Positions 29,055-51,144 of a stretch of DNA of 64,000 nt are shown one piece after another (position 1 is the stretch's first letter; every line of letters begins with the position of its first letter). Both the position numbers and the translations under genes were made by a program. The notes below the pieces were generated by a model. The model was not told the origin of the DNA. It worked only from the letters and a program-made list of their open reading frames with translations, and did not search any database. Source of the DNA: Nemophila menziesii (taxonomy: Eukaryota > Streptophyta > Magnoliopsida > Boraginales > Hydrophyllaceae). The DNA is taken from NCBI GenBank assembly GCA_029959085.1, contig JARWIR010000039.1, positions 1,612,001-1,676,000 on the forward strand. The letters run 5' to 3'.

Positions 29055-31985
29055 TTAGTCATTGACATAACCTCCCCAGCAGTGAGTGAGGTTGTCAATA
29101 TTTGCAAGTCGAAATTTGCATCCCTTCGCTTTTATGCCCACTAGTTTGTCTGAGATAATCTGTGCGACCATGAATGGTCCTATCCAAGAACTTTTTGATT
29201 CACGTACCTTTGGGCGGGGGCTCGGTTTCTTCATAGCTACTTCTTCACCTACTTTGAACCCCTTTTTCTTTCTCTCTTTCTTATGTTCCTTCGGAACCTT
29301 CGTGGCACGTGCTTTCTCTTTCTTCTTCGCATGATTGAGTTGTGGATCTTTGGGGTATGGAGGAGCTTTAATTGGTGGTTTCTTTCGTAGCTCTTTCTCC
29401 TCCACCCCTAAAGTGTCCACAACACTAATTGGCTTTGTTCTTACCGGTTCCATTACTTCTACACGAAAACATTCATCCTTGGAATCCGGAAACTTCATAG
29501 GTCTGAACACGTTGAATTTCACCTCCTCGTCTTGGATCCTCATAATCATTTCTCCATTTTCTACATCAATAAGGGTACGCCCCGTGGCTAGGAATGGTCT
29601 TCCCAAAATAATGGGGACATTCCTATCCGCGTCGTAATCAAGAATAACGAAATCAGCGGGAAAAATTAACGTACCTGCCTTAACGAGGACATCTTCGATT
29701 CGGCCTTCCGGATGTGCGAGAGATCGATCCGCCATTTGCAAAACCATAGAAGTGGGTCTTGCTTCAATATTAAGCTTATCAAAGATTGATTTGGGCATCA
29801 AATTGATGCTTGCACCCAAATCACATAGCGCTTTTCCTTTCCACTCATTACCAATAGATATCGGAATTGTAAAGCTCCCAGGATCAACTAACTTTGGAGG
29901 TAATTTACCTTGACAAATAGCACTACATTCCTCAGGAAGACCAATCATCTCATTATCACAATATGGCCGTTTGTTGGTGAGGGCTTTCTTCAGAAACTTA
30001 GCATACTTGGGTACATCTCGAATAGCTTCTAACAACGGAATATTTATGCTAAGACCTCTTATTTTGTTAAAGAATTTTTGATACTCACCCATATCACCTT
30101 TCTTTTGAACTCTCGATGGAAATGGTGGAGGTGGACGATTGATTATAGTCTCATCTTTCTTTTTCGGAACCTCAACAGGCTTCTCCACTTCTTCTACTTC
30201 AACTTCTTTATCTTTATTCACCACCTCTTTTTCTTTTCTAACTTCTTTTTCTTTCATAACCGGAAAAGGAGGTGGAGGAAGGTTCTTACCACTTCTAAGA
30301 TTAATAACTTTACAATCTTCGATTTGTAACGGATTCTCAGTATCACTAGGAAGTTGTCCTTGCTGACGTTGATTGAGCTGTTTATTGATTTGACTCAGCT
30401 GATTTTGGAACATCTTCATATTTGCTTCAAGTGCATTTTGTCTTTCTATAGCTGCGTTCTGACGTTCGATCGCTGCATCCTGACGCTCCATCGCTGCGTT
30501 CTGCCGTTCCATTGCTTGTGCTTGTAGAGCGATTAAACTTTCAACTGTTTTCTGAAGGGTATTTGCTCCTTCTTGTGGATGGGCAGGTAAAGCTTTCTGG
30601 TTCAAATTCTCATCATAAGTATTCTGAGGAGCTTGTCTCTGTACATAATTTTGATTCTGTCCTCCTTGATAGTTATTGTGTGGTCTAGGATTATAGTTTT
30701 CACCTTGGGGGCGCGGCTGATACGCATGTGTAGGATTGGCTGCCCCATTAGGATTCGAATATTGAAACCCAGGATGGTTTCTGTTAGGCTGATACCCATT
30801 ACCACTCGAATTAAAATTACCTCTGCTGGACATGAACATCACTGATTCTTGATTACTCGGACAACTTTCCTCATCATGATCATCTACCTTACAAATTGAA
30901 CACATATAAACCTCTTGTGCAGCATGCACAGCTACTTTCTTACCCGAAAATCCTTCTTTCACAGCTAGAGTAAGCTGCTTCAATTGTTGCTCTATGGTAT
31001 TCTGGATCTTATTCTCAAACGTAGCAAATTTCTCTTCTATGTCAACATTATTTACTCCCTTGACTGGTGTTCTTACTGAGCTCCACCCAACTTCATTCTT
31101 GACTGTTCTCTCTAAAATGATCTTGGCATGAGCGGGTTGAACTTGAAGAAAACCTGCTCCACATAGCGTATCCAACTTCTCTCTCGAAATTCCATCAAGG
31201 CCTCTATAAAAGATCTTTAACTGTTGTTGTTCTGAAAAGCCATGATTAGGAACTTTACGCAAACACATCTGAAATCTTGTCCAACTCCTACCCACAGTTT
31301 CCTCATACTCTTGACGGAATTGTGTCAATTCTAGTTCAGCATCTAACCTCATGTTACTTGGGTAATACCTGTCAAAGAAAGCGATTTCTAATTGGTCCCA
31401 ATTAGTAATCCTCGTAGGATCTTGCGTATCGTGCCATTCACTTGCTCCATCAATGACAAAGAATTTGAAAGCAGCAAAATACATTTGTTCTCTTGAAACC
31501 CCTTGTGTGATATAAGAATCACATATCTGCTTAAATTTTTGTACCGCTCTAAGAGGATCTTCCGATGGTCTTCCGCGAAAATTTCCAAAGTTTTGGAACT
31601 GAGCTAGCATACCCGAATCTGGACGGAATCTCGGAACATTAATATCTGGAGCACCTACTCCTATAGCTGGAGCGCGGAATGGAACTTCTGGAGGGCCATT
31701 AGTGAACCACGGATCATGATTCATCACTATCTGGACTGGAGGATTAGGATTTAGTGGTTGAACTTGAGGAATAACGCCTGGAGCTAAAGGTTGGCCATTT
31801 GCATCTAACTGGCCTTGTCCATTCTGTTGACCTTGAATAATGATATTCTCCATTCTGTTACTTAATTCTTCTACTTCTAAAGCTTCTCGTTCTCTTCTTC
31901 TTCTGTTCGCAAGTCTGATCAACGATTCTGGATTACTAAGGATCGGAGGTGTTGGCTCTAGATCCTTGAATAGCCTTCTTCGCAT
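29055..31985 (-). CDS. E3 gag-protease polyprotein with GPY/F-like tail
   Basis: 976 residues on the minus strand, uninterrupted. A retrotransposon gag domain covers about 110-290. It is followed by a zinc knuckle CSICKVDDHDEESC of CX2CX4HX4C form, an N/Q-rich region, an eight-residue repeat (RQNAAMER, RQDAAIER, RQNAAIER) that should form a coiled coil, a K/E/P-rich linker, and an aspartic protease with DLGAS at D722. After the protease comes a basic linker rather than RT. The last 65 residues contain GEEVAMKK, SSWIGPFMVAQI, KAKGCK and LTHCWGGY, related to the integrase C-terminal GPY/F module. The ORF starts at the ATG 135 bases after the right LTR. It should make particles and mature them, but cannot copy or integrate DNA. 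Confidence 0.92.
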   Translation of the reverse strand: MRRRLFKDLEPTPPILSNPESLIRLANRRRREREALEVEELSNRMENIIIQGQQNGQGQLDANGQPLAPGVIPQVQPLNPNPPVQIVMNHDPWFTNGPPEVPFRAPAIGVGAPDINVPRFRPDSGMLAQFQNFGNFRGRPSEDPLRAVQKFKQICDSYITQGVSREQMYFAAFKFFVIDGASEWHDTQDPTRITNWDQLEIAFFDRYYPSNMRLDAELELTQFRQEYEETVGRSWTRFQMCLRKVPNHGFSEQQQLKIFYRGLDGISREKLDTLCGAGFLQVQPAHAKIILERTVKNEVGWSSVRTPVKGVNNVDIEEKFATFENKIQNTIEQQLKQLTLAVKEGFSGKKVAVHAAQEVYMCSICKVDDHDEESCPSNQESVMFMSSRGNFNSSGNGYQPNRNHPGFQYSNPNGAANPTHAYQPRPQGENYNPRPHNNYQGGQNQNYVQRQAPQNTYDENLNQKALPAHPQEGANTLQKTVESLIALQAQAMERQNAAMERQDAAIERQNAAIERQNALEANMKMFQNQLSQINKQLNQRQQGQLPSDTENPLQIEDCKVINLRSGKNLPPPPFPVMKEKEVRKEKEVVNKDKEVEVEEVEKPVEVPKKKDETIINRPPPPFPSRVQKKGDMGEYQKFFNKIRGLSINIPLLEAIRDVPKYAKFLKKALTNKRPYCDNEMIGLPEECSAICQGKLPPKLVDPGSFTIPISIGNEWKGKALCDLGASINLMPKSIFDKLNIEARPTSMVLQMADRSLAHPEGRIEDVLVKAGTLIFPADFVILDYDADRNVPIILGRPFLATGRTLIDVENGEMIMRIQDEEVKFNVFRPMKFPDSKDECFRVEVMEPVRTKPISVVDTLGVEEKELRKKPPIKAPPYPKDPQLNHAKKKEKARATKVPKEHKKERKKKGFKVGEEVAMKKPSPRPKVRESKSSWIGPFMVAQIISDKLVGIKAKGCKFRLANIDNLTHCWGGYVND

Positions 31986-32097
31986 ACACCAAACCTAAAA
32001 AACCTGAAAAAGCTAACAAACAAAAAGCGTAAAACTGATAAAATAAAATAAATGCACTTATCACTAAAGGATAAACACCGTGGTCACACGCTACCGT

Positions 32098-32114
32098 CCC
32101 CGGCAGCGGCGCCA
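32098..32114 (-). other. E3 primer-binding site
   Basis: CCCCGGCAGCGGCGCCA on the plus strand, identical to E2 and the reverse complement of E1 and E4. Confidence 0.85.
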
Positions 32115-32120
32115 AAAACT

Positions 32121-33667
32121 TGGTGGTCCTTTGTGTGTTCTAAATAAATGCAAATAATAATCGAACCACAACCGCAAGTGTACGGTTGTCCCAAGTAGTA
32201 ATTCTGATAATCAGATTCGTTCCAAGGACGGATGGTTGATCACAATGTCTATGCAAATAGTGATTGATGCACTTATGAAAATAAAAGAGGATAATTTGTT
32301 TGTTTTGGTTTTGTGATTTATTACTAAATAAATGAAAGACAAAATAATAATGCAAGTAAAAAGCTAAAACGCAAGTATGAGCAAGTAGTACTTGAGAGAC
32401 ACAAGGGTTTTCCTAACTATCATTCATTTCATACATTGTTTAAGGGACAAATTTGTAAATTGGTATTGGTCGGGATTCTATAATCTCCTTACCCCCGTCA
32501 GGGTGGACTAAGGAGCAACTTTCAAGTGCTACAAACCCCGTCAGGGTGATTATAGTCCACTCTCAAGTGATTAAGTCTAAATTACCCAATAGGCCATAGG
32601 TTTAATTAAGCTCGTCAGAGTCAATAATTTCTAACCTACATTCATTAACTAGTTCGGTACCTAAACCCCCCGTCAAGGTGATCCAATCGCCACTAATTGG
32701 AATAGCCTAGATACTAAATCCTATCATTGGTTAATTACGTCAATAATAGTAATTAAAATGCAAATTAAAGAAAAATACAATTTACCCAATTTGATTTAAA
32801 TAATAAATATCCCAAATTCAAATGTATAGAATGAAATCAAATTGGGATTAACCCATTATGCGTTCTCAAGCACTATGAATTGTTTAGCTCATATTAAAAA
32901 GAAAAACTAAATTAAAATAAATGGAATTCATAATTGATTACAAATAAAAGATAAAAGAAACCTAATTTCCGGAATTGGAATGACTGAGAACGGAGCTATA
33001 GACCCACTCCAGCTCTAGCAGCTTCTTCTTCCTTCCTTCTGTTGCTTCTCTCTGGTGTTTTTAATTGTAAAGAATGAATTGTGTGAAAAATAGAAGTCCA
33101 GACCTCCTTTTATAATAAGAAAAACGGATTAGGGCTTGGACCAGAAAATAAAAGCCTAATTAAATGTCCAAGCCCACTTTCTAAGCCCAAAATCCCGTAA
33201 CTGATGACAGGCCTTCACTAAAACTGCTTTTCCCGATGCGTTACAACTCCGATTGACCTCATTCCAGTTGCTAAAGTTCCGTACTTCGATAAGGAATGTT
33301 TTCTCTTCAAAGGTCAGCGGCTCAATCAGCTCTTAAGTACCTCGAAAACAGCAATCAAGGGCCTGAAAAATGGATTTTCAGCTCTAAAAATAATATCTTC
33401 GGGATTTCTCTTCAAGTCTTGACTCTATTCTTTGATCTTTGACTTTATCTTCGGATTCCTTTCCTAGCTAACATCTAAAAACCTGTAAACTTTACACTAA
33501 AAATACCAATATTACGCGCAAAAGTTTAATAATTTAAAAATGCTAGAAATAAAAAGGTAATTCCGAAATATTGCATATTTAACCCAAAAGTCTATCGAAT
33601 TAATTAAATAAACACCAAAAATGATGTCTCCTAAGGGTCTAAAATAAGAACAATTAGGGAGACATCA
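32121..33667 (-). repeat. E3 5' LTR (right copy)
   Basis: 1,547 bp, the same as the left copy in all blocks compared. Candidate promoter TTATAAAAGG on the minus strand at 33106-33115. Confidence 0.94.
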
Positions 33668-33989
33668 AGTATCCTGGAGTTACCGGTCCTGCTAGAGTTT
33701 GACCTGCATATGCCGTAATATTAAATTGATTAGACTAATCGTGAAAGCCTACCAATATACAAAATATGACCTTCATTTTAATCTTATCAATGATAATCTG
33801 CACCAAGAATGGAAATTTGTTAACTGGAACTAAAGAATATCTCATTTCTTTTTTGTCTGAGTGTGAAATAAAAGTTGGACCGATTGTAAGTGAGCAATAC
33901 GATTGCAGTCATGTGCAACCCTCTTGATCCTTTCAACACGTTGTTGAATATCTCAGACAAATTTGTGATCATGAAACCATATCGGTGAC
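33668..33989 (-). pseudogene. MULE transposase fragment upstream of E3
   Basis: The minus-strand translation includes SHRYGFMITNLSEIFNNVLK and GSRGLHMTAIVLLTYN, matching the MudrA-type transposase stretch (GHMTTNLSE..N.VLKG.R.LPI.ALV..T). A stop and frame changes follow before the segment that joins 24068-24417 across E3. It is cut on the right by LTR E6 at 33990. Confidence 0.75.
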
Positions 33990-34547
33990 TGATGTCTCCA
34001 TTTATATGATAGAATAATCTAGTTATGAGATATCATTTTAGGGGTATTTAGTACTTAATTTCAGGATTTTCCTCCATTTATTTATACTTTGCACTTTATT
34101 GTCTAGATTTAGTTGTTTTGCTATTTTATGAGCTTTTGCGCATAATTTATGTGTTATTTGTGTAGCACTTAGATATTGAAAGCTATTACACCTTAGGATA
34201 ATGATAAGAAGTGAAAAGCAAAGGAAACCCCTTAGTCATAAGTAAAAAGGAAAAGTTTAGATATATTTGGATAGTAAAGAATCTGCCTTGCTGGAAAAAC
34301 ATTCACTATTTATAATGCTGCATAAAATCGGTCATGAATTTGGAGGAGCCCTTTATATGAGCAGATAGATATTTGAATTGCGGTAGTTTCCATATAAAGT
34401 ACATTAAATTCCGATAAGTAACGAAAGAGATATGACCAAAGACCAAATAAATCTGCAAAGGTTTATCTTATCCTACAATTTAGGATTACCAATTTTGGTA
34501 AGATTTGAACTCCTTAACTTGGAGACTACTCCATATTTCGACCAAAG

Positions 34548-34614
<67 letters not shown>

Positions 34615-34632
34615 TATATACATACATATATA
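33990..34632 (+). repeat. E6: diverged LTR, left part
   Basis: Starts TGATGTCTCC after gtgac (33985-33989), with the same 46-nt palindrome-bounded start as the other LTRs (second arm GAGATATCA at 34027-34035, one mismatch). No internal region follows. The part after a TA microsatellite is at 39963, beyond a Helitron. It is probably a solo or truncated LTR of a separate family. Confidence 0.65.
34551..34632. repeat. (TA)n microsatellite in E6
   Basis: Over 25 TA units followed by TATACATACA variants. ORFs reading Tyr-Ile repeats here are spurious. Confidence 0.95.
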
Positions 34633-35174
34633 TCTATATAATATTGGAGAAGGGCCAACGGCCCGAAATGTCTCTCATTTTTCTCCACATTTTTTAGCCT
34701 TTGGATCAAATTTCAATCACTTTAAGCCTTTAGATCGATTTCAATTAATGGTCCAGATTATCTAAATTCAATCCACGATTTAAAATGTCTTGATCTATCC
34801 TCTATATTTTTCAGCCATTAGATCTTCCTATTTTATTTTTCACTTTTCTATTTTTCCAAAATATAAAATTTAAAACAAAAAACAAACTTCACGTCTCACT
34901 GCTCACCTACACTTTCTCTCTCTCAACCATGCTGCACTTTCTCTCTCTCCCACCAAGCCGCTTAATCGAAGAATCCACCATTGTCAACCGACTTGGCTCT
35001 CAATCGAAGAACCCTGCGCTTTCTCTCTCTCTCTCCCACCAAGCCTCTCAATCGAAGAATCCACCATTGTCAACCGACTTGGCTAAACGAAGAACACATG
35101 TTCTCTGTCGGCTTAAGAACCCAAGTCGCTCTCCTGCACAAAGAAAATCGCCACCACTCAGGGACCACTCTCTA

Positions 35175-35364
35175 CCATCATCAATCGGCTCTAAGAACCC
35201 AAATTAAGGTAAAAAATTGAAATGATTTTTTAACCTAATCTCATCACTTTTATAATTTTTCAGAATAATATGGTTTAAGAACCTGAATTAAGGTAAAAAA
35301 TTGAAATGATTTTTAACCTAATTTGATAACTTTTATAATTTTTCAGAATAATATGGTTTAAGTA
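35175..35364 (+). repeat. Tandem duplication in the Helitron
   Basis: Two adjacent copies of about 88 bp, each with ATTAAGGTAAAAAATTGAAA, a middle AT-rich part and a TTTTTCAG acceptor-like end followed by AATAATATGGTTTAAG. Each looks like a short intron followed by a small exon, so an exon-intron unit seems to have been duplicated. Confidence 0.7.
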
Positions 35365-35978
35365 TATTTTGTTCTTATTCAAATTCCTATGTTCTATGAG
35401 AAAGAGGTACTTTACTTCTTTCTTTCCTTGCTTACGTAAAAGAAATAAATTGTCAGTACAAACATATTTGTATTTATTGTATATCTTTTACTTATAGATA
35501 CATCATAAGTTACATATATGTATATATATTCATTTCCAAGCAATCCATTCCGATTCATTATCATTACATTACATCAATGCGATAATTTTTTAATAATGGG
35601 GTTTTGCTCTTCACATATCTGTTCACATTTTTCCATTTTATTGATTTTCACACATATGGTACTCTCTTTCTATAGATATGTATGCATCTATATTACTGTG
35701 GTGTTTTATTTATTTTTGGATTATTGACGACTTTCTAACATAGATTTTGAATTTGGATGATTTCTAGGGCTAAATTGTACGGTTGCAATTGAACTTTGAC
35801 TTTCCGCTGTTCGATCACAGTCGATTGGTGAATCGATTTTGACTCTTTACCTCTACGTATGTCCATTTCTTCATCGATTACTGCAATTTAGGATTGAAAT
35901 TGTGATTTATGTAAATTAAATTAAAATTTGTTGGTTTTTGTGGTCGAAGTAGTGAAATTATAGCGATTAAAATTGCAG

Positions 35979-36157
35979 CCGCTGCTGCAGCTGTTCTGTA
36001 TGATCACCCAGCCACCAGCGCTGCTACTAGCAATGGCGGCGATGCTGGAGATGTAGTAATGGCACGGTGGCTCCAGTCTGTTGGATTCCAGCATCTCGGC
36101 TCTCCACATGCATCTACTGGTGTAGATAGTCGCCTCCTTCCCAATCTACTTATGCAG
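35979..36157 (+). pseudogene. Captured exon of a kinesin-13A-like gene
   Basis: The open frame gives AAAAVLYDHPATSAATSNGG, then GDAGDVVMARWLQSVGFQHL, then a segment ending STGVDSRLLPNLLMQ. This matches the N-terminal exon of plant kinesin-13A (the pattern DAG..VMARWLQ..G.QHL.SP.AST....R.LPNLLMQ), which precedes the motor domain. The exon is bounded by TTGCAG on the left and CAG|TAT on the right. The rest of kinesin is absent, so it is a gene fragment carried by the Helitron. The frame has no stop, so it could be read within a chimeric transcript. Confidence 0.85.
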
Positions 36158-36529
36158 TATAAATTCAAATCTACTCATCACTTTTCTAGCTTATTATATT
36201 TTGATTATTAGCAAAATGATTTTATACTTTGATACGGAATGTAGATTTGGAATCTTAATTGTGTTGATTTATCATAATTATTCAGGTTAGGTTATTTGCA
36301 TCATTGAACTCGGTGTTATGCAAAATAGTCTAATGTACATCTATTTTGTTGATCCCTTCATCAAGGTAATTTTTTTTAAATTTTTTTTCATCAAATAAAT
36401 TTTTCAGTTTTATTACATATTCATTGGTAGCATTTTGAGGGATTTTAAGCACAATACAGGGACATATAGTGCATCAGGGACCTATTGTGCAATTTTCTTA
36501 TACTGCATTTTTTAAATTGTTTCAGGGAC

Positions 36530-37860
36530 CATTCTTCACCATCATTAACCCGGCTTGGCTAATCAACAATCGAAGAACCCAAATCCATATCAAACTCAAC
36601 CTTCCCACCAAGAAAGATGAGTATTTAAACTTGAAAGTAGAAAGATACAATTTACGATGCTCCAGGTATTAAATGATTAGTTTTTTCATAGTATATTTTC
36701 TCTGTGTTTGGCACAAGAAATCAACCGGCTTGGTTCTCACATTCTCTTCACACTCAGGGCACCTGTTTGAATCGGTGTTACTATTATGGAAGAGCTGTAA
36801 GTCAAAATACAGTTCTCTTTGGTTTAACTTTTTATTTCACTATTTTCCAAAAAACAAAAATAAGTATTTCACACTCACCTTCCCACCAAGCCGCTCACCT
36901 GCACAAGAAAACCGCCGCCACTCGGAAACCAGTCTCCACCATTATCAACCCATGGCCATCAACAATCGAAGAGATCTCTTCACACTCAATTCTCACCGCC
37001 GCCAGAGACCAATTTCCACCACCATCATCAACCGGCTTGGCGAAGCGAAGAAATAAATTAAGGTAAAAAATAAAAAACCTAATCTCAATACTTTTACAAT
37101 TTTTAAATTATCTGATTTAATAATATTTATTATATTTTTATACAAATTCTACAATGGCCATTAAAAATTGTATGAGAAGTGATGTGAGCAATTCGGTCTT
37201 ATACTCATTTTTTATTTGTTTTGCAGTAAATATCCGGGCACCAATGCAGAAGATGTAAGTATATATTTATTAGTATTATATATTTTTACAAACTCTACCA
37301 TGGCCATTAATATAACTGTTGGAAGCCTTTTACCGTATGAAATAGAATAGTTGTTTCTGTTGAAGTGAACAATTTGGTTCGTACTCCATTTTTAAATTGT
37401 TTTGTAGTAAATATCTAACCTATTCTCATCACTTTACAATTCTCTGAATTTTCTTAATTAAGTATAATTCCAGTTTTTTTCTTTTTTTTCAGAAAGTATA
37501 AATTACAGTCGACCACCATCATCAACTGGCGGCTTGGCGGAAAACCCACATTAAGGTAAAACAACCCGTATGAGCAATTTGTTGTTATACTGCATTTTTT
37601 GAATTGTTTTGTAGTAAAACCGTATGAGAAGTGATGTGCTCTTGGAGTGAGCAATTTGGTATTTTACTGCAATTTTTTAATTTTTATTCATTTGCAATTA
37701 CAATTTTTTTTCTTTTTTCTTTGTTTCTTAATAATCGACGTGCCTGAAGTAAATGAGAAGTTACTTGCTGAAATTAATGCTAACGTGCTTTGTTGATTAA
37801 TCAGGTATCACCTTAATTAATCCAAGGCTTGGCGAAGAACCCAAATTAAGGTAAAAAAAA
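36530..37860 (+). repeat. Dispersed copies of a 45-bp motif in the Helitron
   Basis: Copies resembling CACCATCATCAACCGGCTTG plus GCGAAGAACCCAAATTAAGG lie near 36535, 36938, 37018, 37513 and 37815. Further copies outside this span are near 34975, 35066 and 35175. Several end ATTAAGGTAAAA. Confidence 0.65.
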
Positions 37861-38091
37861 TAATTCATACCATTAAAACTCTAAAGAATTAATTATTTTA
37901 TGATTTATTAGTGTATTTGGGTTAATTTAGTTTGTGGTTTGATCTGTTTCAGATTATTTTTAAAGCTACTGATACATTTACTTACTTCATTTTAGTAGCA
38001 TTTGAGGCATCAGGGATAATTCAATTCTCATTATTATTATTGATGTGGCCATTGATCTGTTTGTTAGATATATGTGGTGAATGAGACATAG

Positions 38092-38429
38092 GGCACAAGA
38101 TTTGATTTCTCAGGTTTTGCTCTTGCACTGGATATGGATGCTGCAAGGGATATCCAATCTGTTAGAAAGGTGCAAATATCTTTGTTATCTATTTGTTGTA
38201 CTTTCTTTGACAATTGTGTCTCTTCTGATAGTGGCTATTAAATTTTGAAATTTCGCTTAAAAAGGTTAGTCTGTTAGCATTTTATGTATAAACCTTTTTT
38301 CAAGTGTTTGGATAATCATTTTTCCAGAATTTCTTTGCTGACACAAAAGAAGATTGTTACAATCCAAAAATGCATCATGTGGTTCCTGTTGAATACATGA
38401 GAAGAATCATGCTTGAGAGTACCCATCAG
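38092..38429 (+). pseudogene. Two exon-like pieces of an unrecognised gene
   Basis: Exon-like 38092-38169 (26 codons, GTRFDFSGFALALDMDAARD...) lies between an AG acceptor and AAG|GTGCAA. Exon-like 38328-38429 (34 codons, NFFADTKEDCYNPKMHHVVP...) lies between TTTCCAG and CAG|GTGTGA. Both are phase 0 and free of stops, and an AT-rich gap of intron length separates them, so they look like captured exons of one host gene. I do not recognise the protein. Confidence 0.5.
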
Positions 38430-39962: not shown

Positions 39963-40059
39963 TATATATATATATACATATATATATACATACATACATA
40001 TATATATATATATACATACATACATATATACATACATACATATATACATACATACATAT

Positions 40060-40119
<60 letters not shown>
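39963..40119. repeat. TATATACATACA microsatellite
   Basis: Mixed (TA)n and TATACATACA repeats, the right half of the microsatellite split by the Helitron. Confidence 0.93.
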
Positions 40120-41104: not shown

Positions 41105-41118
41105 AAAAATGAGTATAT

Positions 41119-41239: not shown

Positions 41240-41253
41240 AAAAATGAGTATAT

Positions 41254-42253
41254 AAAAATAAAAAATAAAGATTAGTACGAGAAATATGGAATTCGGTAAA
41301 AGTATTAGAAAAGAGAAAAAAAAGATAGGTAGTAGTTGAAAAGAAAAGAATTAGGTGGAAAGAAGTTGGTGCGAAAATTGATTTACCTACTTATTTGGAA
41401 ATCTTTTCTGAAATGAAATCCATTTCGAAGTTTCAAACTGCGAACGGTATAAATTCACAAACAATTTTAAAATTAGACAATCGTGTAAATTTAAAAAAAA
41501 AAAAGCTTAAAAATGAAAAAACTCCGCAAATTATGACTTGTTAATAATTATTTGACCAGAAAGACATAAAGTTGGTAAACTAAAAACTTTGACTTCTAAG
41601 AAATTACTTTTTAACCATTCATTATCAGATTTTCTTTCTTCTTCTGGTCAAAACTATTTATTCAACCGAAACAAATAAGTGAAAAAGAAAAGCGTGCTCC
41701 ACAAGCGCGTATTTGACGCGTCAGTCAATAAATCATACCACCAAAAGAATTCCATTTCTCTTCAAAAATTATTTCCTGGAAAAAAAACTAAATTAAATTA
41801 CCTTTGTATAAGTCCCACAAAAGCAAAACCCACACGTTCTCGTCTCTGACATTTTCACAAGCAGCCATTGTACGGTCAAATCAAAAAAGCTTCCACCATT
41901 CTGCTGTTTGTGAAAGATTAATTTGATTTGAGGTTTTATTGACCTCTTTTCTACTGTTTAATTTCTCTATTTTATCGACTTTTTTCTTCAACATTGGTTC
42001 ATTCTAAATCTTGATCACTTTCTTTCAAACAGAACCCATGTTTTTCCCTTAAGATTAAAGCCTTTTTTTGGCGTTTTTATGGTTCAAAAGGGTTTTCAAT
42101 ACTATTGAAAAGGAATGGGCTACCATATTTGATCTAAAGCTTACCCCTTTGACCATATTTGTAAGTTTTTCATTCAGAACTTTTCACAAGCATTAGATGT
42201 GCATATTGAAATTTGAAGTTAGCTTTGTTTAATTCTTGTTATTATATAGAATA
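41254..42253 (+). promoter_or_regulatory. Upstream region and 5' UTR of the PP2C gene
   Basis: AT-rich with no ORF of note. From about 41800 the sequence becomes pyrimidine-rich in the style of a 5' leader, and TGTATAAGT near 41804 is a weak TATA candidate. A leader intron is possible but cannot be placed. Confidence 0.35.
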
Positions 42254-43440
42254 ATGGGTTGTTTACCTGGAAAAGCTTGTTGTAAGTTGAAATCTGAGAA
42301 TGGTGATAAGAGAAAATCCAAAATAGGTTGTATATATAGAAAGTGTTGTGGCAAGTACACAAAATCTGAAGATGAAGCTAAGAGTATTACACGTCATGAA
42401 ACGCATGTAATTACTGATATGCCATTAGATAATGTTCATGTTCATGTACCTTCACATAATTACAAGTTAGAGTATACTGTTCTTACACAACGTGGTTATT
42501 ATCCAGACACACCTAATAAAGAGAATCAAGATAGTTATCATATACAAACAAATATTCAAGGTAATCCAAATATTCATTTCTTTGGTGTATTTGATGGACA
42601 TGGTCAAACAGGTACAAAATGTGCACAGTTTGTTAGTGATAAATTAATTGAATTATTATCAAACGATACATCTTTATTAGAAGATCCAATCAAAGCTTAT
42701 AACACAGCTTTTTTAGCTACAAATGAGGAGCTTCATAATAGCGATATTGATGATTCAATGAGTGGTACAACTGCTATAACAGTTTTAGTAATAGGTGATA
42801 AGTTATATGTAGCAAACGTGGGTGATTCTAGAGCTGTTTTAGCTGTTAAAAAAGATGAAGTTCTTGCAGACAATTTATCGAACGATCAGACTCCATTTAG
42901 GAAAGATGAATATGAGAGAGTTAAACTTTGTGGGGCGAGAGTTTTAAGCGTTGATCAACTTGAAGGGGTTAAAGATCCTGAGATTCAATCGTGGGGTGAT
43001 GAAGAAACGGACGGTGATGATCCTCCGAGATTATGGATGCAAAATGGGTTTTTTCCTGGTACGGCTTTTACAAGGAGTATAGGAGATAGTATTGCTGAGA
43101 AAATTGGTGTTATTTCTGTTCCAGAAGTTTTAACGGTTCAGATTAATCCAACTCATCCTTTCTTTGTTTTAGCTAGTGATGGTGTTTTCGAGTTTCTTTC
43201 AAGTCAAGCTGTGGTTAATATGGTACGTAAAGAATCTTCACTTGTCTTTTTTTTTTTTTTTTTTTTTTTAATTTTTTTATTGAATTTGTGTAGGTGAATA
43301 GGTATGAAGATCCTAGAGTTGCATGTTCAATGATTGCTAAAGAATCGTATAAACTATGGCTTGAGCATGAAAATCGAACTGATGATGTAACGATTATTAT
43401 TGTACGGATTAAGAACTTTTGTGATGTATTGAACAATTAA
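42254..43440 (+). CDS. Protein phosphatase 2C (PP2C35-like)
   Basis: Two exons, 42254-43222 and 43294-43440, give 371 residues. The intron (71 bp, ATG|GTACGT to GTGTAG|GTG, phase 0) has a run of about 25 T. I chose ATG 42254 because it gives MGC, an N-myristoylation and palmitoylation signal typical of this subgroup; codons just upstream have no ATG. PP2C motifs in order: QRGYYP, ENQDSY (D93), FFGVFDGHG (D114), [50 protein letters not shown] and, across the intron, [10 protein letters not shown]. The metal-binding aspartates are all present, so it should be an active Mn/Mg-dependent Ser/Thr phosphatase at the plasma membrane. Closest in style to Arabidopsis At3g06270; the substrate is unknown. 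Confidence 0.93.
43223..43293 (+). other. Intron of the PP2C gene
   Basis: GT...AG, 71 bp, with a long T run at about 43246-43270. Reading through the intron gives a false C-terminus of poly-Phe; splicing restores the conserved [10 protein letters not shown] end. Confidence 0.9.
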
Positions 43441-43829
43441 TTAGGTTTTGAGTTGTACATAGAGTAGAAGAAGTGTAGTGTTAGTTTATTACTTCATTTG
43501 TCTTGTGTTGTTTTGGCCTTGTGATTTGAAGGCTTTAATTGTTGTATTACAATCTTGATGAATGAAGAATGTGTATATTATTATATTTCCCTTGCTAACT
43601 ATAAATCTTTTGTTTTTTTTTTTAATATTTTGATTTAGATAGAAACATAAAGTTAACATTATACACGCAAATTATCTCTAACGCTCATAGTTAATGGAAT
43701 ATTAGTGTTTGAACTAAGTGAATAATTGACCATATACAGCAAAATTGGGATATTACTATCGATGCTTAGATAATTATAATTATCTTAATCAAGCTTCCAC
43801 TAACATAATTTAGAATACAATTACACCTC
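43441..43829 (+). other. PP2C 3' UTR and flank
   Basis: AT-rich with AATGAA-type signals near 43560. No further gene seen. Confidence 0.45.
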
Positions 43830-44060
43830 AATGGTTATGGAAAAAAATTGGAACTGGAACATAAAAGATTAATGCCTTCTTTTGGAAATGTTTAATAAAA
43901 TGACATTCAGACTAAGCTTACAATGTTCAAGAGAAAATGTATTTTGTTACCAAGATGTTGTATATGTGAGGAGTATAATGAGACGATTAAGTATATCTTA
44001 CTAACTTCTAGATAGAGACGATGATCATACACAACTTGAACCAAAGGAAAATATCAGTTT
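43830..44060 (+). pseudogene. LINE reverse-transcriptase zinc-binding (zf-RVT) remnant
   Basis: Degraded frames give LWKKIGTGT, a stop, KINAFFWKCLI, then after frameshifts LLPRCCICEEYNETIKYILL. This matches the zf-RVT region of plant L1-like LINEs (W...P.K...F.W......C..C....E...HLL..C). It is on the plus strand, opposite to the LINE at 56563-63400, so it is a separate copy. Confidence 0.6.
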
Positions 44061-44700
44061 CTCATGAGGGTGGTGAAGTTTCTTGAAAGTTCTAAGGACA
44101 ATAGATGGTCAAAATACAATGTCATAACCTTCTTTGCTTCCTTTATGCTGGAATATGTGAAATACCAAAGTGAAATTTACGTTTGAGGATTCAGTCTGGA
44201 ATGAAGATAAAAATTGATGAGTTTACTAGGAAAACAATTAAAATACTTCTTTTGTATTTTCCTTTTAGAAGGTCAGTCTAGCTTTTGTTGGTCTTAAAGT
44301 GGAAGGTGTTTATGTTAATACCGCTCAATCAGCCTAAATGTAACTCGCCTCTTGAAGAAAAAGATTATGTCCTCAAAATAGATGAGTGTGCCAATAAGGC
44401 CAACTTGGATTTTTCTATTATAAAGTCAAATTGATTTGATGTTGTTCATGGCACGTCGGTGCTTTCTAAATTAAGGTGGAATACTAAAGATATGTTGACT
44501 AAAGAAATAACAACTGTTGGTGATAGCTATTCCTTTAAAGTTTAAATACATTCCAATATCTATATTAATGGAACGACTAATAATCTGGCCAAGAATATTA
44601 GAGATGGTTCTCGTAGTTGAGAAATCGATGGTGCTTTGTTTTATACTAGCAGTTACTTCTTAGGGAAGTATTTCGAAGATGGGCATGGGCTAAGTTGTTA
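44061..44700 (+). other. Probable continuation of decayed LINE DNA
   Basis: Short open pieces such as LEEKDYVLKIDECANKANLD near 44350, but no domain I can name. Confidence 0.3.
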
Positions 44701-44952
44701 CTCGTCCCACTGAAATTGTCTACTTATTAAAAATAATATTTCAAATATATTGTCTACTTAGGAGTTCAAGACACTTTTTTTTCTACTTTTTCCACTATTA
44801 TCTTTATTAAAATATTGAAATTTATATTTTCGATACACGTTTAAGATATTAAGATACTTTATTAGGGGTATTTTTGTAATGGTGAATGCATTTATTATGT
44901 TTCTTAATATATGTGAAAAGCTAAGTGGACAAATTAAGTGGAACGGAGGGAG
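44701..44952. mobile_element. Stowaway-like MITE
   Basis: About 252 bp between TA dinucleotides (44699-44700 and 44953-44954). The right end reads GGAACGGAGGGAG; its reverse complement CTCCCTCCGTTCC is the classic Stowaway terminus. The left end CTCGTCCCACTGAAATTGTC pairs with the right inverted repeat, with a small deletion of the CCTCC part. No coding capacity; a mariner-type transposase would be needed in trans. Confidence 0.8.
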
Positions 44953-46249
44953 TAGTCTCTAGTGAAACTTTTGTATATTTTGGAACCTTATGAGGATTTT
45001 TAATTATAAGTATATGGTATTGACTTTACGACAACAAAAAACTATAAAATTTAGTGAAATACATACGAATACTATATGGTCTACCTAAATTTCACAAAAT
45101 CTCGATATGATTTAGAAATTACCGAAAATCTCCACGTGATCTCACATAATAAGCATAAAGCTCTCCAATTTCATCAATTTTGATGTTAAAGTGTATTCCA
45201 CTTGTAGGGGAGACAATTTAATTGAAAATTTGATTCCAGTCGAATCTGATCTAAAAAAATTAAATTCAAAATTAGATGGGAAATTGGAATTTTTTGGTAG
45301 AAATAAAAAGTAGGAATCTGAAGTTAAAAAGAATATCCAGATGCAAAGTATTTTAAATAATATATTTAATGCATCTGCAAATATATATTGCATCGAATGC
45401 ATCAAACCAACGCATGAAGCGTGGTAAACCTGTAATACATATAACTAATGCATGAAATTTGGTAGATATGTAATGCATATAACCAACACATGAAGCGTGG
45501 TAAACCTGTAAGTTCAAAGTATACCGTTGCCCCAAAGAAGAAAATCTCATGAGTAAATGATGAAATGGTAAATAATGTGGAATGTGCACTCTACATGATA
45601 TGACATGAATTACTGAGCCAACTAATGTTGGTACATGCATTGATCTTAAAGGAAGCAATGATCATAGAAGATACCAAGGTTAATGAATACGAGAAAAGTT
45701 ATGTAGATTATTTGTCTATTGAAAATATAAAAACTATGAGACAGTTTGTAAGATCAATATATTTTCATTTACTGTAGCGCTTGAAATAAATAATAAATAC
45801 TCTAAACCACAAAGTGGTGAAATATGTCAAGAATGATAGAGAGTATAATAATGAGTTTCAAAATCTAAAGCCCTACTTGTATCATGGAAGTTCTTGTTGG
45901 AAGACGTCTTCATTCTTATATTACTGATACGGTGCATTGATGATTAGATTGGTATTAAAGTTTTCGACAAACAAAATAGGTGCTCGAAGCACCATAGGTG
46001 CCTGAAGCATGAAATGTGCTCAAGTACGAAAGCTGTTTGAAAGCACAACAAATGCCCAAAGCAAGATAGAGGCGTGAGGTACTTAGAGCGTATGAATATT
46101 AAGTTCTCTAAGATTGGGAAGTGCTGGTGTATAAAAGGTTCTAAAGAACACAATTTATTTAAAGCACAAGAGACAAGTGTCTGAATTATGAAAGGATACT
46201 CGGAATAATTGTTTTCATAATTAATATAATAATGAGGAGGGTGCGATAC
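44953..46249. other. Decayed, probably copia-derived DNA with short repeats
   Basis: No intact gene. At 45386-45511 three degenerate copies of a unit of about 42 bp (AACCAACGCATGAAGCGTGG and variants) lie in tandem. At 45960-46100 there are GTGC-CGAAGCA-type near-repeats inside broken frames. The 3' end leads into copia-type 3' repeats, so it is probably decayed copia pol, but I cannot show a domain. Confidence 0.35.
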
Positions 46250-46890
46250 TAACGTATTTTACTCTTTTTCCTTCACTAAGGTTTTTTTTTCACTCGATTT
46301 TCCTAGTAAGTTTTTGATGCATGCCAATATTCATTATCAAAAGAATTATATACTTTTTTTCTTAATCAAGAAAATGATGTTACTTACACTCAATACCCTA
46401 AAGTGAAAATCTAGAGGATTTGTTCATTAAGGTTTTATTAACGATGACAATCAAGGTACAAGTACTCAAGTACCTAATGTCTCGGGAAATACGTAATGTC
46501 ACAATGAGGGGGAGAATATCTTAAAAGGTTGTACACATTTTTCTTCATCCAATTTATTATCACATTGGAGTTTTCTTGGCAAGGTTTGAACGAGACAGTG
46601 TTTCAAGATGATTAGTTCCATATTTATGTACTTTTTTTCCTTCGACCAGATTTTTATCCCACGGGGTTGTTCGTGGAAATTTTTTAACGAGGCATATTTT
46701 ATAATGGACGGAAATCTAAGCGGTATTATTATAAATAAATAATAAGTATATTTAGTGGATGTCCTTTGGGTTCATGGACTCTTCTCATTTTCTTTATTAT
46801 TTGGCATACCCCCAAGAAATGATGTACTTGTTTTCCTTCATCAAGTTTTGTCCCAATAGGTTTTCTTGATAAGGTTTTAATGATACATAT
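46250..46890 (+). repeat. Copia-type 3' repeat array, four copies
   Basis: Degenerate copies near 46250, 46535, 46628 and 46823 of a block with a TTTTTCCTTCA-like start, TTTTTATCCCAC, GGTTTTCTTGGCAAGG and TTTAACGAGGCA, with GGGGGAG purine tracts between. Such blocks follow the coding region of plant Ty1/copia elements, near the PPT. Confidence 0.6.
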
Positions 46891-47149
46891 CCTTCAGTGA
46901 ATATCCAAGAGGGGGCATTATGTAATATTTATATAAGTGGAGATTCTCGATAAAGTCACAACACATCAAAACGACTTACATCAACTTATGATGAAGCATG
47001 CATCCGCTAGTAATTATGCAACTACTTACAATTTTCTATATATAGTACGATATTCATATCATACTGGATATTTTTCTGATGGAATATTTGTCCATCAATT
47101 AACTTATGTATACAATGTATATGGTTAAGATCACTGCTTATCTTCAGTA

Positions 47150-47239
47150 TGAAATATACCAATGATATTATGAGGATAATGATACTTGTATCACACAAAT
47201 TCAAAATGACTATATCAAAGGTAACGTAACAAAACATAT
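47150..47239 (+). pseudogene. Copia RNase H remnant, left part
   Basis: The frame DNDTCITQIQNDYIKGNVTK, joined across E4 to HISPKFS, matches the copia RNase H stretch (DN.A.I.......K.RTKHI....). It is cut at 47239 by E4. Confidence 0.72.
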
Positions 47240-48757
47240 TGATGTCTCCTCATTTGTGATAGATTTATATTAGGATGAGACATCATTTTTAGTGATTTAG
47301 AAGTCATTATAGTCGTTTTTCTTGAGAAATGCTACACTTTCCTATTTTGAGTCTTGATTTAGTAAAATAATATTTTTAGAGCATATTGGGTTTAATTATT
47401 TATTTAGTGTGAAGCTTTAAAGATAATTATGGAGATTAATTAGAGTCCAATTCAAAGACTACAAGATATGGAAAGAGATAAGCATGGTAATTGGAGATAA
47501 AGGAAAGAAAAGCTAAAAACATGGAAAAGGAAAACCTGCCTTAATCCTGAATTTCTGCACCTACGACCACAAATCAGCTTATATCTCAAGAACGGTGTGG
47601 AATTTGGAGAAACGGTCAAGAGCAAAGTTGAAGAGCTTTCCGAGACGATCAATTTGGTATATTCATACGCGTCAAACGGATGAATATCGAAGCTGTTAGA
47701 GCCAAAAGAAGATCGGACCTGATTTCATGTTTTTAGGGTTACGAATTTGAGTTGGGCTTGGAGTCCACTACTTACTTCTCCTTCAAGAAAACGAATTAGG
47801 GCTTCCAAGATACCTATAAATACACCCTCTTATCATTGTAAACATGTCCTTGCTCAGTTCTAAACATTAGCTTAAATTATAAACAATAGCTTAGTCCTTT
47901 ACATTGATATTCATCCTTAGAATCAAGCTATTCATTCAAGAAGCAAGCTGACCTATAGAGGAAGACAAGAAGAAGAAGATTGGAGACTGACAAACTCCTC
48001 TTCTACATCTCACCTTCTCTATATTTAGGGTAATTAGCTATAGATCTATTCTCAACCATATTTCTAAGCTTTTATTCTGTAAGTTTACCTTTAATTGTTG
48101 GATTATTATTTGGTCTTTAATTCATAAATACTATTTGTTATTTTAATTGATTGAGCTTGGCGTATATTGTTATTATGTGTTTTGACTTATTGTTACACCT
48201 TAGATTTGGCCAATCTTAGGATTATTCTTAGTTATTGACAACACCACATAATCGTCTAGTTTTGATCCCTTGCCTAACTAGATAGCCATTAAGGTTTGAT
48301 TTAATCACCAATCATTACTTAGGAATCCCTAGTAGTGGAGAAGTTGCTCCTAAGCCTAGAAGGCTAGGTAGAATTTAGAATCCTGGTTAATATATAATGC
48401 TTAATCTGTGACAGGTTAGAATAACGATTTAGTAATAGACTCATATTAGTAATCCTAATCTATTAGACTTACATTCATATTTAGTTATTTGTTTTGTTTA
48501 TTTGTTTTCGTAATTTATTTATTTGCATTAGATAGTTATTTATCTTTTCATATTTTATCCAAACATCTAAATTCATCTACGCTTGTTAAACATAAATTGA
48601 TCTAACGGATACAATCCCTGCGAACGAACTTGACTTATCATTAAAACTTGCAAACGATCTGTGATACTTGCAGTGAGTTCCGTGGTTCTCAAGGGTGTGT
48701 GACCTTTATTATTTGCTTTATTTATATCATTATTTTATCACACCTTTGCCCCCACCA
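47240..48757 (+). repeat. E4 5' LTR
   Basis: 1,518 bp, TGATGTCTCC to CCCCCACCA. TATA box TATAAATA at 47815-47822. Confidence 0.95.
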
Positions 48758-48763
48758 AGTTTT

Positions 48764-48780
48764 TGGCGCCGCTGCCGGGG
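48764..48780 (+). other. E4 primer-binding site
   Basis: TGGCGCCGCTGCCGGGG, six bases after the LTR, identical to E1. Confidence 0.85.
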
Positions 48781-48885
48781 ATTTATCTTTAAGTTAAATC
48801 TATTTTGTGTTTATTTAGTGTAGAAGTTTTTATTTGTTTTCAGTTTTACGCTTTCTTTTTGTTTTAGTCTTTCTCAGGATTTTAG

Positions 48886-51144
48886 ATGGATAATCAACGG
48901 TTAGAGCTAGGTTTACCTAATAAATTTCGAGTTCAACGCATTGGGATTCGCGTCCCAACTATCCAAGCCGTTAGATTCAAGCCTGATCCTGATTTAATTA
49001 ATCAATTCGCGAGCTATGGGAAATTTAATGGTGATACAAATCAAGATCCGGTCAGATCTGTTCAAAAATTCATGCAATTTTGTGATGCCTACATTAATGA
49101 AGGTGTTACGCAAGAACAGATGTATTATTTAATGTTTCAATTTTTCTTGACCGGGAAAGCAAGCGATTGGTTCGATGATCAACCTCCCGAGCTAATTACC
49201 GATTGGGACAAGCTTCAAGAAAGATTCCTTGATAAATTTTATCCTACAAGTATGCGAGTAAAGGAACTATTGGAGCCTACAAATTTCTTACAAGAAGCCG
49301 GAGAGAGTGTTGGTGAAGCATGGACGAGATTTCAAAAGATGTTGGCAAAATGTCCACTACATGGATACACGCCACAATTACAATTATCCATGTTCTATAA
49401 TGGACTCGATAGAGAGTCAAGGCTGAGAGCAGATAATATGGGTCGTGGAAATTTTGTCTCTATGGATCCAAAAGAAGCAAAAAGTGGTATGGAAACAATC
49501 ATTGAGAACAACATGAGTTGGCCACAAGGAAAAACTCCTACCACTAACGAAGAAGAAGATGCGAGGATTTCAAGGTTGCAAGATCAAATACAACAACTCG
49601 CTATAACTGTTAAGGAAAGCATCCCAAAGCCACCTCAACAGTTATACCTACAAGAGCAAGCCTATGAAAATCAAGCTAATCAACCACCGAGCTATACTGT
49701 GCATAATGAAAGTCAAGCTCAATCACGTCCTCAAGAAGAGATTACTGAGTTAAAAGAGACTATTAGTCAATTCATCAACTTCTCAAAGGAAAATATGAGC
49801 AGACTTGAATCAAAAATCGATGCATCAGTAGTGCAAAGCCTGCAACAACATAACCAAGATCTTAAACAACATAATCAACTTTTAGAGAAGAATGTGATGC
49901 AGCTCACTACAATCATAGAACAAATGCAAAGTCAACTCCTACAATTGACCCAAGATACAACGTCTAACATGAAGAAGATCCAATACGTAGACGATAAGGT
50001 TAAGACTATTAGTCTTCAAGCTCAAAAGATAAAAGAACATGGTGAGATAATCACCAAAGCGCTACCATCTCCCTCAAAAGGGGATGTTCTACCAAACAAG
50101 TCAAACGTAAGTCGGATGAACTTAGATGAGATAATTGTTGAGGATTGGGTTGAAGAAGTTGAACATGATGAGATTAAGAAGCCTAGAGTGGTTGATGGAC
50201 CAAGAATTGAAGAGAGAAGTAGAGCAAGACAAACACCCATACATTGCCACTATCCCACGGAGCAACATCAGAAGTGTATAGAGGCGTTAAAACAAGTAAA
50301 AATTAACGTCCCTTTACTCGAAGCTATGGAAGGAAGGAGAAACTATGATCGATTCTTTCTGGAGGCACTCTCCAATAAGAAAAGATTCACAAGAGCCAAG
50401 TCTGTAGCAATCAACGAAGGGGTATCAGCACGAGTTCAACGAAGATTACCACCAAAGCGTAAAGATCCGGGAAGTTTCAATCTCCCAATCAAAATAGGTG
50501 GTATATTTCATGGAAAAGCCATGTGTGATTTAGGGGCAAGTGTGAATATCATGCCCAAAAGTGTATTCAAGAAGATTGGTATTAGTGAAGCGAAACCGAC
50601 ATCCGTAGTCTTACAACTTGCGGATCACTCTACAGTTAAGCCGTGGGGAGTAATAGAGGATGTACTCGTTCAAGTAGGTAACCTTGTTATTCCAACGGAC
50701 TTTATTATTCTTGACTACAAAGCAGATAAGAACGTCCCATTCATTCTTGGGCGTCCATTCCTAGCCACCAGCGATACTATAGTGAATGTGAATGAAGGAA
50801 CCGTGACTCTTAGTATTAAAGATAACGTTGAAACATTCTATGTTTCGGGAAAGAAAAGGAAAAAGAAGTCAAAGGAACTATATCCAATCAGAGCAGTAAC
50901 CAAGAAGCCAGAACCTGAAAGTCTCCAAGAAACCATAGAGAAAAATATTGAGTTTGGGGTAGGAGACGAGGTGGCATGGAAACCTCCCAACCCCAAACAG
51001 AGCAGTTCTTGGAAGGGACCTTATGTTATCACGCAAATTATCTCAGAAGGAGTGGTCGAAATCAAGGCTATCAAAGGTTGCAAGCTCGATTTAGTAAGTG
51101 TTAATCATCTCACTCACTGCTGGGGAGGCTATAAAAAGAAATAA
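48886..51144 (+). CDS. E4 gag-protease polyprotein with GPY/F-like tail
   Basis: 752 residues, no stops. The gag domain (about 35-205) is close to that of E1, with FKPDPDLINQFASYGKFNGD and [21 protein letters not shown] Gln-rich, coiled-coil region follows at about 215-400; no zinc knuckle is visible, unlike E1 and E3. The aspartic protease has DLGAS at D548 and a conserved ILGRPFLAT. Directly after it comes a 60-residue tail with VGDEVAWKPP, SSWKGPYVITQI, VEIKA and LTHCWGGY, the same tail as E3 and related to the E1 integrase end. The ATG is 105 bases after the PBS. The product should form and process particles but lacks copying and integration enzymes. Confidence 0.92.
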   Translation: MDNQRLELGLPNKFRVQRIGIRVPTIQAVRFKPDPDLINQFASYGKFNGDTNQDPVRSVQKFMQFCDAYINEGVTQEQMYYLMFQFFLTGKASDWFDDQPPELITDWDKLQERFLDKFYPTSMRVKELLEPTNFLQEAGESVGEAWTRFQKMLAKCPLHGYTPQLQLSMFYNGLDRESRLRADNMGRGNFVSMDPKEAKSGMETIIENNMSWPQGKTPTTNEEEDARISRLQDQIQQLAITVKESIPKPPQQLYLQEQAYENQANQPPSYTVHNESQAQSRPQEEITELKETISQFINFSKENMSRLESKIDASVVQSLQQHNQDLKQHNQLLEKNVMQLTTIIEQMQSQLLQLTQDTTSNMKKIQYVDDKVKTISLQAQKIKEHGEIITKALPSPSKGDVLPNKSNVSRMNLDEIIVEDWVEEVEHDEIKKPRVVDGPRIEERSRARQTPIHCHYPTEQHQKCIEALKQVKINVPLLEAMEGRRNYDRFFLEALSNKKRFTRAKSVAINEGVSARVQRRLPPKRKDPGSFNLPIKIGGIFHGKAMCDLGASVNIMPKSVFKKIGISEAKPTSVVLQLADHSTVKPWGVIEDVLVQVGNLVIPTDFIILDYKADKNVPFILGRPFLATSDTIVNVNEGTVTLSIKDNVETFYVSGKKRKKKSKELYPIRAVTKKPEPESLQETIEKNIEFGVGDEVAWKPPNPKQSSSWKGPYVITQIISEGVVEIKAIKGCKLDLVSVNHLTHCWGGYKKK

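What the first reader, a model, noticed from the sequence alone, without database searches (positions are those of the whole stretch)
29055..51144. Two separate gag-protease-only families both end in a GPY/F-like integrase tail
Seen: E3 (976 aa, minus) and E4 (752 aa) both lack RT, RNase H and the integrase core, yet both join protease through a linker to the same 60-65 residue tail (GxEVAxK, SSWxGPxxVxQIIS, IKAxKGCK, LTHCWGGY). The E1 integrase ends with the related WGGPYIITKV. Known: the GPY/F module at the integrase C-terminus of Ty3/gypsy elements is linked to multimerisation. Inferred: keeping only this module, in two families with identical LTR pairs, suggests selection, for example to pull a helper integrase onto the parasite's particles or cDNA. 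Internal deletion alone would not predict the same junction twice, unless both descend from one ancestor.
Basis: partly seen in the sequence, partly recalled or inferred. Interest (0 to 1): 0.9.

Follow-up and report, generated by a model that had tools for sequence, protein, structure and literature searches.

The report
Gag-protease retrotransposons keeping an integrase tail
Young plant jumping genes that make only a shell protein and a protease carry, as the last piece of that protein, the small end domain of an integrase whose catalytic part they lack; the piece is conserved and sits on distinct gag-protease lineages, so it probably does a job for these dependent elements.

Summary
E3 (29055-31985, minus) and E4 (48886-51144, plus) lie in intact non-autonomous LTR elements with 5-bp target duplications and identical LTR pairs. 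Each encodes gag, protease, linker and a 63-67 residue tail, without RT, RNase H or integrase core. The tail is homologous to the integrase C-terminal (GPY/F, SH3-like) domain. A third family, E5, has the same architecture; in 37 E5 copies internal branches carry 14 synonymous and 0 nonsynonymous tail changes. The tails form one clade (100/100), yet E3's protease groups with an autonomous-type relative and E1, away from E4/E5, so tail and gag-protease have been re-assorted by recombination. Among the 120 best listed plant relatives, 18 have a pol remnant after protease without RT, and all 18 lie in the last 12% of pol (Cannabis, Humulus, Ulmus, Sesamum, Dioscorea). Gag-protease-only "semi-autonomous" elements are known (wheat Sabrina, WHAM); my searches listed no description of a retained integrase tail. 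What the tail does (docking helper integrase or cDNA, or binding RNA) was not tested. Selection on E3's tail is inconclusive and on E4's untested.

The parts
24418..33667 (-). E3, non-autonomous gag-PR-tail element, 9250 bp, TSD AGTAT, LTR pair without a difference
29055..31985 (-). E3 ORF, 976 aa gag-protease-linker-tail
31194..31469 (-). E3 gag domain (PF03732, residues 173-264)
29448..29915 (-). E3 protease region (residues 691-846), groups with the autonomous-type relative L031 and E1
29259..29447 (-). E3 linker, basic (residues 847-909); most of it has no DNA match in the autonomous-type relative
29058..29258 (-). E3 integrase-CTD tail (residues 910-976)
47240..55830 (+). E4, non-autonomous gag-PR-tail element, 8591 bp, TSD CATAT, LTR pair without a difference
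48886..51144 (+). E4 ORF, 752 aa gag-protease-linker-tail
49132..49410 (+). E4 gag domain (PF03732, residues 83-175)
50485..50760 (+). E4 protease (PF13650, residues 534-625)
50953..51141 (+). E4 integrase-CTD tail (residues 690-752); identical in 66 of the 150 best-scoring genome matches, itself included
2964..14204 (+). E1, autonomous element, TSD GGTTT
4558..9798 (+). E1 gag-PR-RT-RH-INT, 1746 aa
9559..9756 (+). E1 integrase CTD (residues 1668-1733), homologue of the tails
14762..21069 (-). E2, relative of E4 without the gag-PR-tail ORF, TSD ATGGT
51150..51185 (+). conserved element just after the E4 stop codon (also E1 9805-9837 +, E3 29013-29049 -, E2 19198-19236 -)

Best explanation
E3, E4 and E5 are semi-autonomous Athila-type LTR retrotransposons. 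They make their own Gag-protease and are reverse transcribed and integrated by pol proteins of autonomous relatives such as E1, which share PBS and LTR termini. Their Gag-protease keeps, as a C-terminal module, an integrase C-terminal SH3-like domain (GPY/F) that has been maintained by purifying selection (shown for E5) and has been re-assorted among gag-protease lineages by recombination. Most likely mechanism (inferred): in particles assembled from parasite Gag-PR-CTD and helper Gag-Pol, the basic CTD acts in trans as a nucleic-acid and integrase docking surface that couples the element's RNA or cDNA to the helper integrase. Shown: architecture, homology, selection in E5, conflicting trees. 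Inferred: trans-mobilisation and docking.
For: Intact LTRs, TSDs, shared termini and PBS. Tail homology to integrase CTDs and a CTD-like model, pLDDT 83.9, pTM 0.69, whose seven best PDB matches by Foldseek are retroviral integrases. E5: 37 of 41 loci examined were used; tail internal branches 14 syn: 0 nonsyn, P about 4e-9 with the mutation spectrum of the adjacent noncoding DNA. Tails one clade 100/100, E3 protease with L031 100/99 and with E1 100/98; E3 is mosaic in DNA: 94-98% to the autonomous-type copy over 1601-2800 (gag), 92-94% to the tail-bearing copy over 3401-4600. 18 of 18 RT-less pol remnants among 120 listed relatives lie at E1 1628-1739. Tails of E3, E4, E5 have net charge +6, +4, +11. 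Precedents: HIV-1 IN CTD binds viral RNA (PMC7551943, passages); the Ty3 CTD contacts target DNA or TBP depending on the subunit (PMC8632968, passages).
Against: No interaction or activity was tested. E3 against L032: tail dN/dS 0.36 from 5 syn and 7 nonsyn changes, too few. The AU test does not reject one clade for the five gag-PR-tail proteases (p 0.056). With only the two window tails the model failed (pLDDT 42); the good model used integrase CTDs in its alignment. Cannabis tails have lost the W and P of the motif, Ulmus ones keep only the last part, and 43 of the 120 relatives have no BLAST match to pol after protease (32, of which P0175 has a weak CTD HMM hit) or end there (11), so a full CTD is not required everywhere.
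Confidence: 0.6

Rival explanations
1. The tail serves RNA packaging or particle maturation, not integrase recruitment: a basic SH3-like domain on Gag-PR binds element RNA, like the HIV-1 integrase CTD in virions. (This differs from the best explanation in mechanism only.)
For: Tails and linkers are basic; E4 has no CCHC knuckle while E1, E3 and E5 copies L012 and L022 do; HIV-1 precedent.
Against: E3 and 6 of 9 gag-PR-tail proteins of other plants checked have a CCHC knuckle; no RNA binding was tested.
Confidence: 0.3
2. The tail is a scar: deletions remove pol up to a needed cis element just after the stop codon, and the last in-frame residues of integrase stay as a passenger.
For: A conserved element starts within about 10 nt of the stop in the 7 aligned copies that have the ORF end, and is also in E2; it may fix the 3' limit of deletions. 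Ulmus and Sesamum remnants are partial or degenerate.
Against: Internal branches of E5 show 14 syn: 0 nonsyn in the tail; the tail is shared by protease lineages that stand apart.
Confidence: 0.12
3. History only: one old gag-PR-tail element gave E3, E4 and E5, and E3's gag-PR was later overwritten from its autonomous partner. (Compatible with the best explanation's mechanism.)
For: One tail clade; AU test on protease not below 0.05; E3's LTRs resemble the tail-bearing copy about as much as the autonomous-type copy.
Against: In the protease tree E3 and L032 together sit with the autonomous-type copy, so an overwrite would have to predate both.
Confidence: 0.35
4. The tail is a dominant-negative or self-limiting domain that competes with the helper's integrase.
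For: A free CTD could in principle interfere with intasome assembly; inference only.
Against: At least 150 E4 tail matches of 97-100% identity (the cap) and identical LTRs show recent success.
Confidence: 0.05

Closest known systems
RLG_Sabrina_SA and RLG_WHAM of wheat and barley (Athila clade, partners RLG_Wilma / RLG_BAGY2)
   Same: High-copy LTR elements with only gag and protease, tRNA-Asp PBS and conserved 5' LTR ends; Sabrina_NA forms have the gag-pro region replaced, somewhat like E2 (PMC9744471 passages and section 2.8; PMC5738225 passages).
   Different: The passages read describe gag and protease only; no integrase-derived tail is mentioned. Their sequences were not looked at here, so absence of a tail is not shown.
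RLG_Quinta with autonomous RLG_Cereba (wheat centromeres)
   Same: Gag-encoding non-autonomous partner with shared LTR termini and PBS; gag comes with an unexplained domain DUF1 (PMC11302176 abstract and passages).
   Different: Cereba is a centromeric retrotransposon with a CR domain, another lineage; DUF1 is not identified as an integrase part in what I read.
TR-GAG class of non-autonomous LTR retrotransposons
   Same: Used for LTR elements with only GAG, or GAG and protease (PMC6022998 passages).
   Different: That definition has no integrase CTD.
GPY/F module, C-terminal SH3-like domain of Ty3/gypsy and retroviral integrases
   Same: Sequence and predicted fold; Athila/Tat modules are compared in PMC2577118 (passages).
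   Different: Here it stands after protease, without zinc-binding domain or DDE core.
gag-PR-CTD proteins of Cannabis and Humulus (P0136 with 41 member sequences, P0185, P0160)
   Same: Same domain order with a basic linker before an integrase CTD.
   Different: In the best tree their tails group with two Cannabis autonomous integrases (94/92, unstarred), so probably a separate origin; one origin is not rejected (AU p 0.28). Six 843-aa Cannabis proteins have a shorter junction. All are annotated proteins; their DNA was not seen.

Membership tests
Semi-autonomous gag-pro LTR retrotransposon (Sabrina_SA / WHAM type, TR-GAG) | Paired LTRs with target-site duplication | tested here: met
Semi-autonomous gag-pro LTR retrotransposon (Sabrina_SA / WHAM type, TR-GAG) | Intact gag and protease ORF, no RT, RNase H or integrase core | tested here: met
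   among the 150 E4 tail matches many frames of 739-753 aa, none longer
Semi-autonomous gag-pro LTR retrotransposon (Sabrina_SA / WHAM type, TR-GAG) | Autonomous partner with the same PBS and LTR termini | tested here: met
   TGGCGCCGCTGCCGGGGA and TGATGTCTCC...CACCA in E1, E2, E3, E4; an autonomous-type E3 relative in L013/L031, itself a broken copy
Semi-autonomous gag-pro LTR retrotransposon (Sabrina_SA / WHAM type, TR-GAG) | Mobilised in trans by the partner's pol | not testable with these tools
   inferred from identical LTRs and copy number
Athila lineage of Ty3/gypsy | tRNA-Asp primer binding site, gag-pol in one ORF, extra ORF downstream (E1) | tested here: met
   that this PBS fits tRNA-Asp is recalled, in line with what PMC1142308 and PMC9744471 say of Athila kin
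Athila lineage of Ty3/gypsy | RT phylogeny with named Athila elements | not tested
   no named Athila RT was put in a tree
GPY/F module (integrase CTD) | W-x-GP[YF] motif in a CTD-like profile | tested here: met
GPY/F module (integrase CTD) | SH3-like fold | tested here: met
   predicted with 14 rows that include integrase CTDs; integrase chains lead the Foldseek list, best E 0.025 and none at 0.001; with the two window tails alone no fold
GPY/F module (integrase CTD) | Position after the DDE core of an integrase | tested here: not met
   it follows protease and linker
GPY/F module (integrase CTD) | Multimerisation | not testable with these tools
   none

The most novel reading that the evidence does not exclude
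An integrase C-terminal domain has become a free, exchangeable Gag accessory: dependent retrotransposons fuse it to their own Gag-protease to recruit a helper's integrase or cDNA in trans, and this solution arose more than once in plants.
Probability: 0.35. Interest if true: 0.85.

Novelty: new variant of a known kind. Interest (0 to 1): 0.62.

Why it matters
Gag-protease-only elements are among the most abundant transposons of wheat and barley, and how such elements hold on to a helper's enzymes is open. A small conserved domain on the parasite's own Gag gives a testable handle on that question, and it shows selection on a piece that an annotation of gag and protease alone passes over.

Tried and rejected

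Caveats on the counts: the 120 relatives are the best listed of 1752 hits to E4 500-752, a query that includes the tail, so tail-bearing proteins are favoured; many are gene models. For the Sesamum proteins P0207 and P0219 the match stops at or before the start of the CTD proper. The E5 set was not random: the 20 loci and 12 of the 20 were picked for long frames. Four of 41 loci were left out (L011, whose ORFs look LINE-like by eye; L013, L023 and L024 without the open tail), and rows were taken by an open tail with some of its motifs, which biases slightly against nonsynonymous change at those codons. The tree (FastTree on protease, linker and tail) includes the tail, and changes were counted by parsimony. 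L009 and L010 overlap L022 and L017 and were dropped. One of the 20 tails (L046) reads past the usual stop.

Full report
What is there. The window (G000:C258:1612001-1676000, a 1.517-Gb genome) holds a cluster of LTR retrotransposons with the same termini (TGATGTCTCC...CACCA), the same PBS (TGGCGCCGCTGCCGGGGA) and 5-bp target duplications: E1 2964-14204, E2 14762-21069 (minus), E3 24418-33667 (minus), E4 47240-55830. E1 is autonomous (gag-PR-RT-RH-INT, 1746 aa). E3 and E4 encode gag and protease, then a linker and a tail. Their LTR pairs show no difference over 1550 and 1519 bases, so both moved very recently (inference).

The tail. E3 and E4 tails are 56% identical. With four E5 rows and a second E3-type copy (L032), 18 columns are invariant among 7 rows. 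A 7-row profile aligns to E1 at residues 1670-1726, its integrase C-terminus, with a score of 39.6-39.9 against at most 19.3 in 200 shuffles of that E1 segment and 17.5 for the next best window of E1. The tail HMM also finds the integrase ends of many plant polyproteins, and an HMM of 55 such ends finds all 7 tails back (E 1.9e-9 to 4.2e-7; not independent, as the ends were picked by the tail HMM). In the alignment LTHCWGG of the tails stands under LKHYWGG of integrases. Modelled with those homologues the E4 tail folds with pLDDT 83.9 and pTM 0.69; the seven best Foldseek matches in the PDB are MMTV, RSV, HIV-1 and STLV integrase entries (best E 0.025, none at 0.001). With the two window tails alone there was no fold.

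A third family and copy numbers. Gag hits elsewhere in the genome led to E5, with frames of up to 982 aa (stop to stop) and the same architecture; the tail was open in 20 of 20 further loci from the gag list, 12 of them picked for long frames. For E4, 150 matches were scored of 21,570 first-look candidates, all 97-100% identical: 66 of 150 are identical to the window's tail (itself included), 148 of 150 have no stop, and no tail lies in a frame longer than 753 aa (the list is ranked by score and capped, so this describes and does not test selection).

Selection. On a tree of 37 E5 copies (41 loci examined, 4 left out), changes in the tail on internal branches are 14 synonymous and 0 nonsynonymous, on terminal branches 50 and 47; internal linker 18 and 12, internal protease 86 and 99. 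With the mutation spectrum of the noncoding DNA after the stop, 75% of tail changes should be nonsynonymous, so 0 of 14 has P about 4e-9 and 47 of 97 P about 2.5e-8. Synonymous sites vary, so the constraint is on protein rather than DNA. E3 against L032: tail 5 syn, 7 nonsyn, dN/dS 0.36; protease 0.05; too few changes to conclude.

Where the tail came from. All five E tails are one clade (100/100) apart from 41 other CTDs. In the protease tree E3 and L032 sit with the autonomous-type element of L013/L031 (100/99) and E1 (100/98), and E4 with E5 (100/97); holding the five together costs 16.5 log units, p-AU 0.056. In DNA E3 is mosaic: 94-98% to the autonomous-type copy over 1601-2800 (gag) against 76-94% to L027 where that aligns, but 92-94% to L032 and 80-84% to the autonomous-type copy over 3401-4200; from 4201 to 4600 (linker and tail) only L032 matches, and in 4601-4800, mostly after the stop, both match again at 93-95%. 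The LTRs resemble both about equally. So in E3 the linker and tail stand where RT, RNase H and integrase stand in its relative. That relative is a broken copy (split frames, a stop in its CTD). E4 and E5 likewise share about 89% DNA identity over 1.9 kb that ends in the LTR, but their proteins only about 36%. ORF and cis parts are being re-assorted.

Other plants. In the 120 best listed of 1752 hits to E4 500-752, the part after protease was compared with E1 pol: 50 run on from RT, 8 have gaps, 11 end at protease, 32 have no match, 1 has no protease end, and 18 lack RT but match later. All 18 matches lie within E1 1628-1739: Cannabis 9, Humulus 3, Sesamum 3, Ulmus 2, Dioscorea 1. Some are degenerate: Cannabis tails have lost W and P of the motif, Ulmus ones keep only 1702-1729, and two Sesamum matches stop at or before the CTD. 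Cannabaceae tails group with two Cannabis autonomous integrases (94/92, unstarred), which suggests a separate origin; a single clade for all tails is not rejected (p 0.28).

How it most likely works. Shown: young intact elements, no pol, a CTD module conserved in E5, an autonomous element with the same PBS and termini. Established for relatives: integrase CTDs bind DNA and proteins (Ty3, PMC8632968, passages) and viral RNA (HIV-1, PMC7551943, passages). Inferred: in mixed particles the Gag-bound CTD links element RNA or cDNA with helper integrase. Docking and RNA binding cannot be told apart here.

Known kinds. Gag-protease-only Athila-type elements thought to be mobilised by an autonomous partner are known in wheat and barley (Sabrina_SA, WHAM; PMC9744471, PMC5738225, passages and one section), and a gag plus DUF1 element in wheat centromeres (Quinta; PMC11302176, abstract and passages). 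The retained, selected and re-assorted integrase CTD is the new part; my searches listed no description of it, in a library that lacks most subscription papers.

A side result bears on the scar rival: 8 aligned copies, autonomous or not, share an element (CGTC[T/G]...[A/C]GACG followed by TTAAACAAAAG or TAAAACAAAAG) that begins just after the stop codon where the ORF is present. It has a 5-bp stem with one pair changed on both sides; 97% of cells pair, but 41 of 500 shuffles reach that, so the stem is suggestive only. It may fix the 3' limit of deletions, but it begins after the stop and does not explain a conserved coding tail.

Noticed in passing
window 9805-9837 (+), 51150-51185 (+), 29013-29049 (-), 19198-19236 (-): Conserved element directly after the stop codon in autonomous and non-autonomous elements (in E2 without the ORF), with a possible 5-bp hairpin.
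   Followed up: partly
window 14762-21069 (-): E2 matches E4 up to 4 bp before E4's ATG and again from 4 bp after its stop, with a short different stretch instead of the ORF, reminiscent of the replaced gag-pro regions of wheat Sabrina_NA.
   Followed up: partly
window 10721-11203 (+); L017 from 6788; L031 from 5356: Extra downstream ORFs of 160, about 400 and 440 aa in E1, E5 and the autonomous-type E3 relative.
   Followed up: no
window 48886-51144 (+): E4 gag has no CCHC knuckle, while E1, E3 and E5 copies L012 and L022 do; E5 copy L017 lacks it too.
   Followed up: partly
window 42236-43297 (+): ORF with a protein phosphatase 2C domain between the elements (PF00481, E 1.7e-39).
   Followed up: no
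window 57048-58566: LTR fragment or solo LTR of the E2/E4 type, about 88-92% identical where it aligns.
   Followed up: no
G000:C223:15057-15344: Gag match reported inside an open frame of 5832 aa.
   Followed up: no
L031:3940-4260: The autonomous-type E3 relative has a stop codon inside its integrase CTD, so this copy is broken.
   Followed up: no
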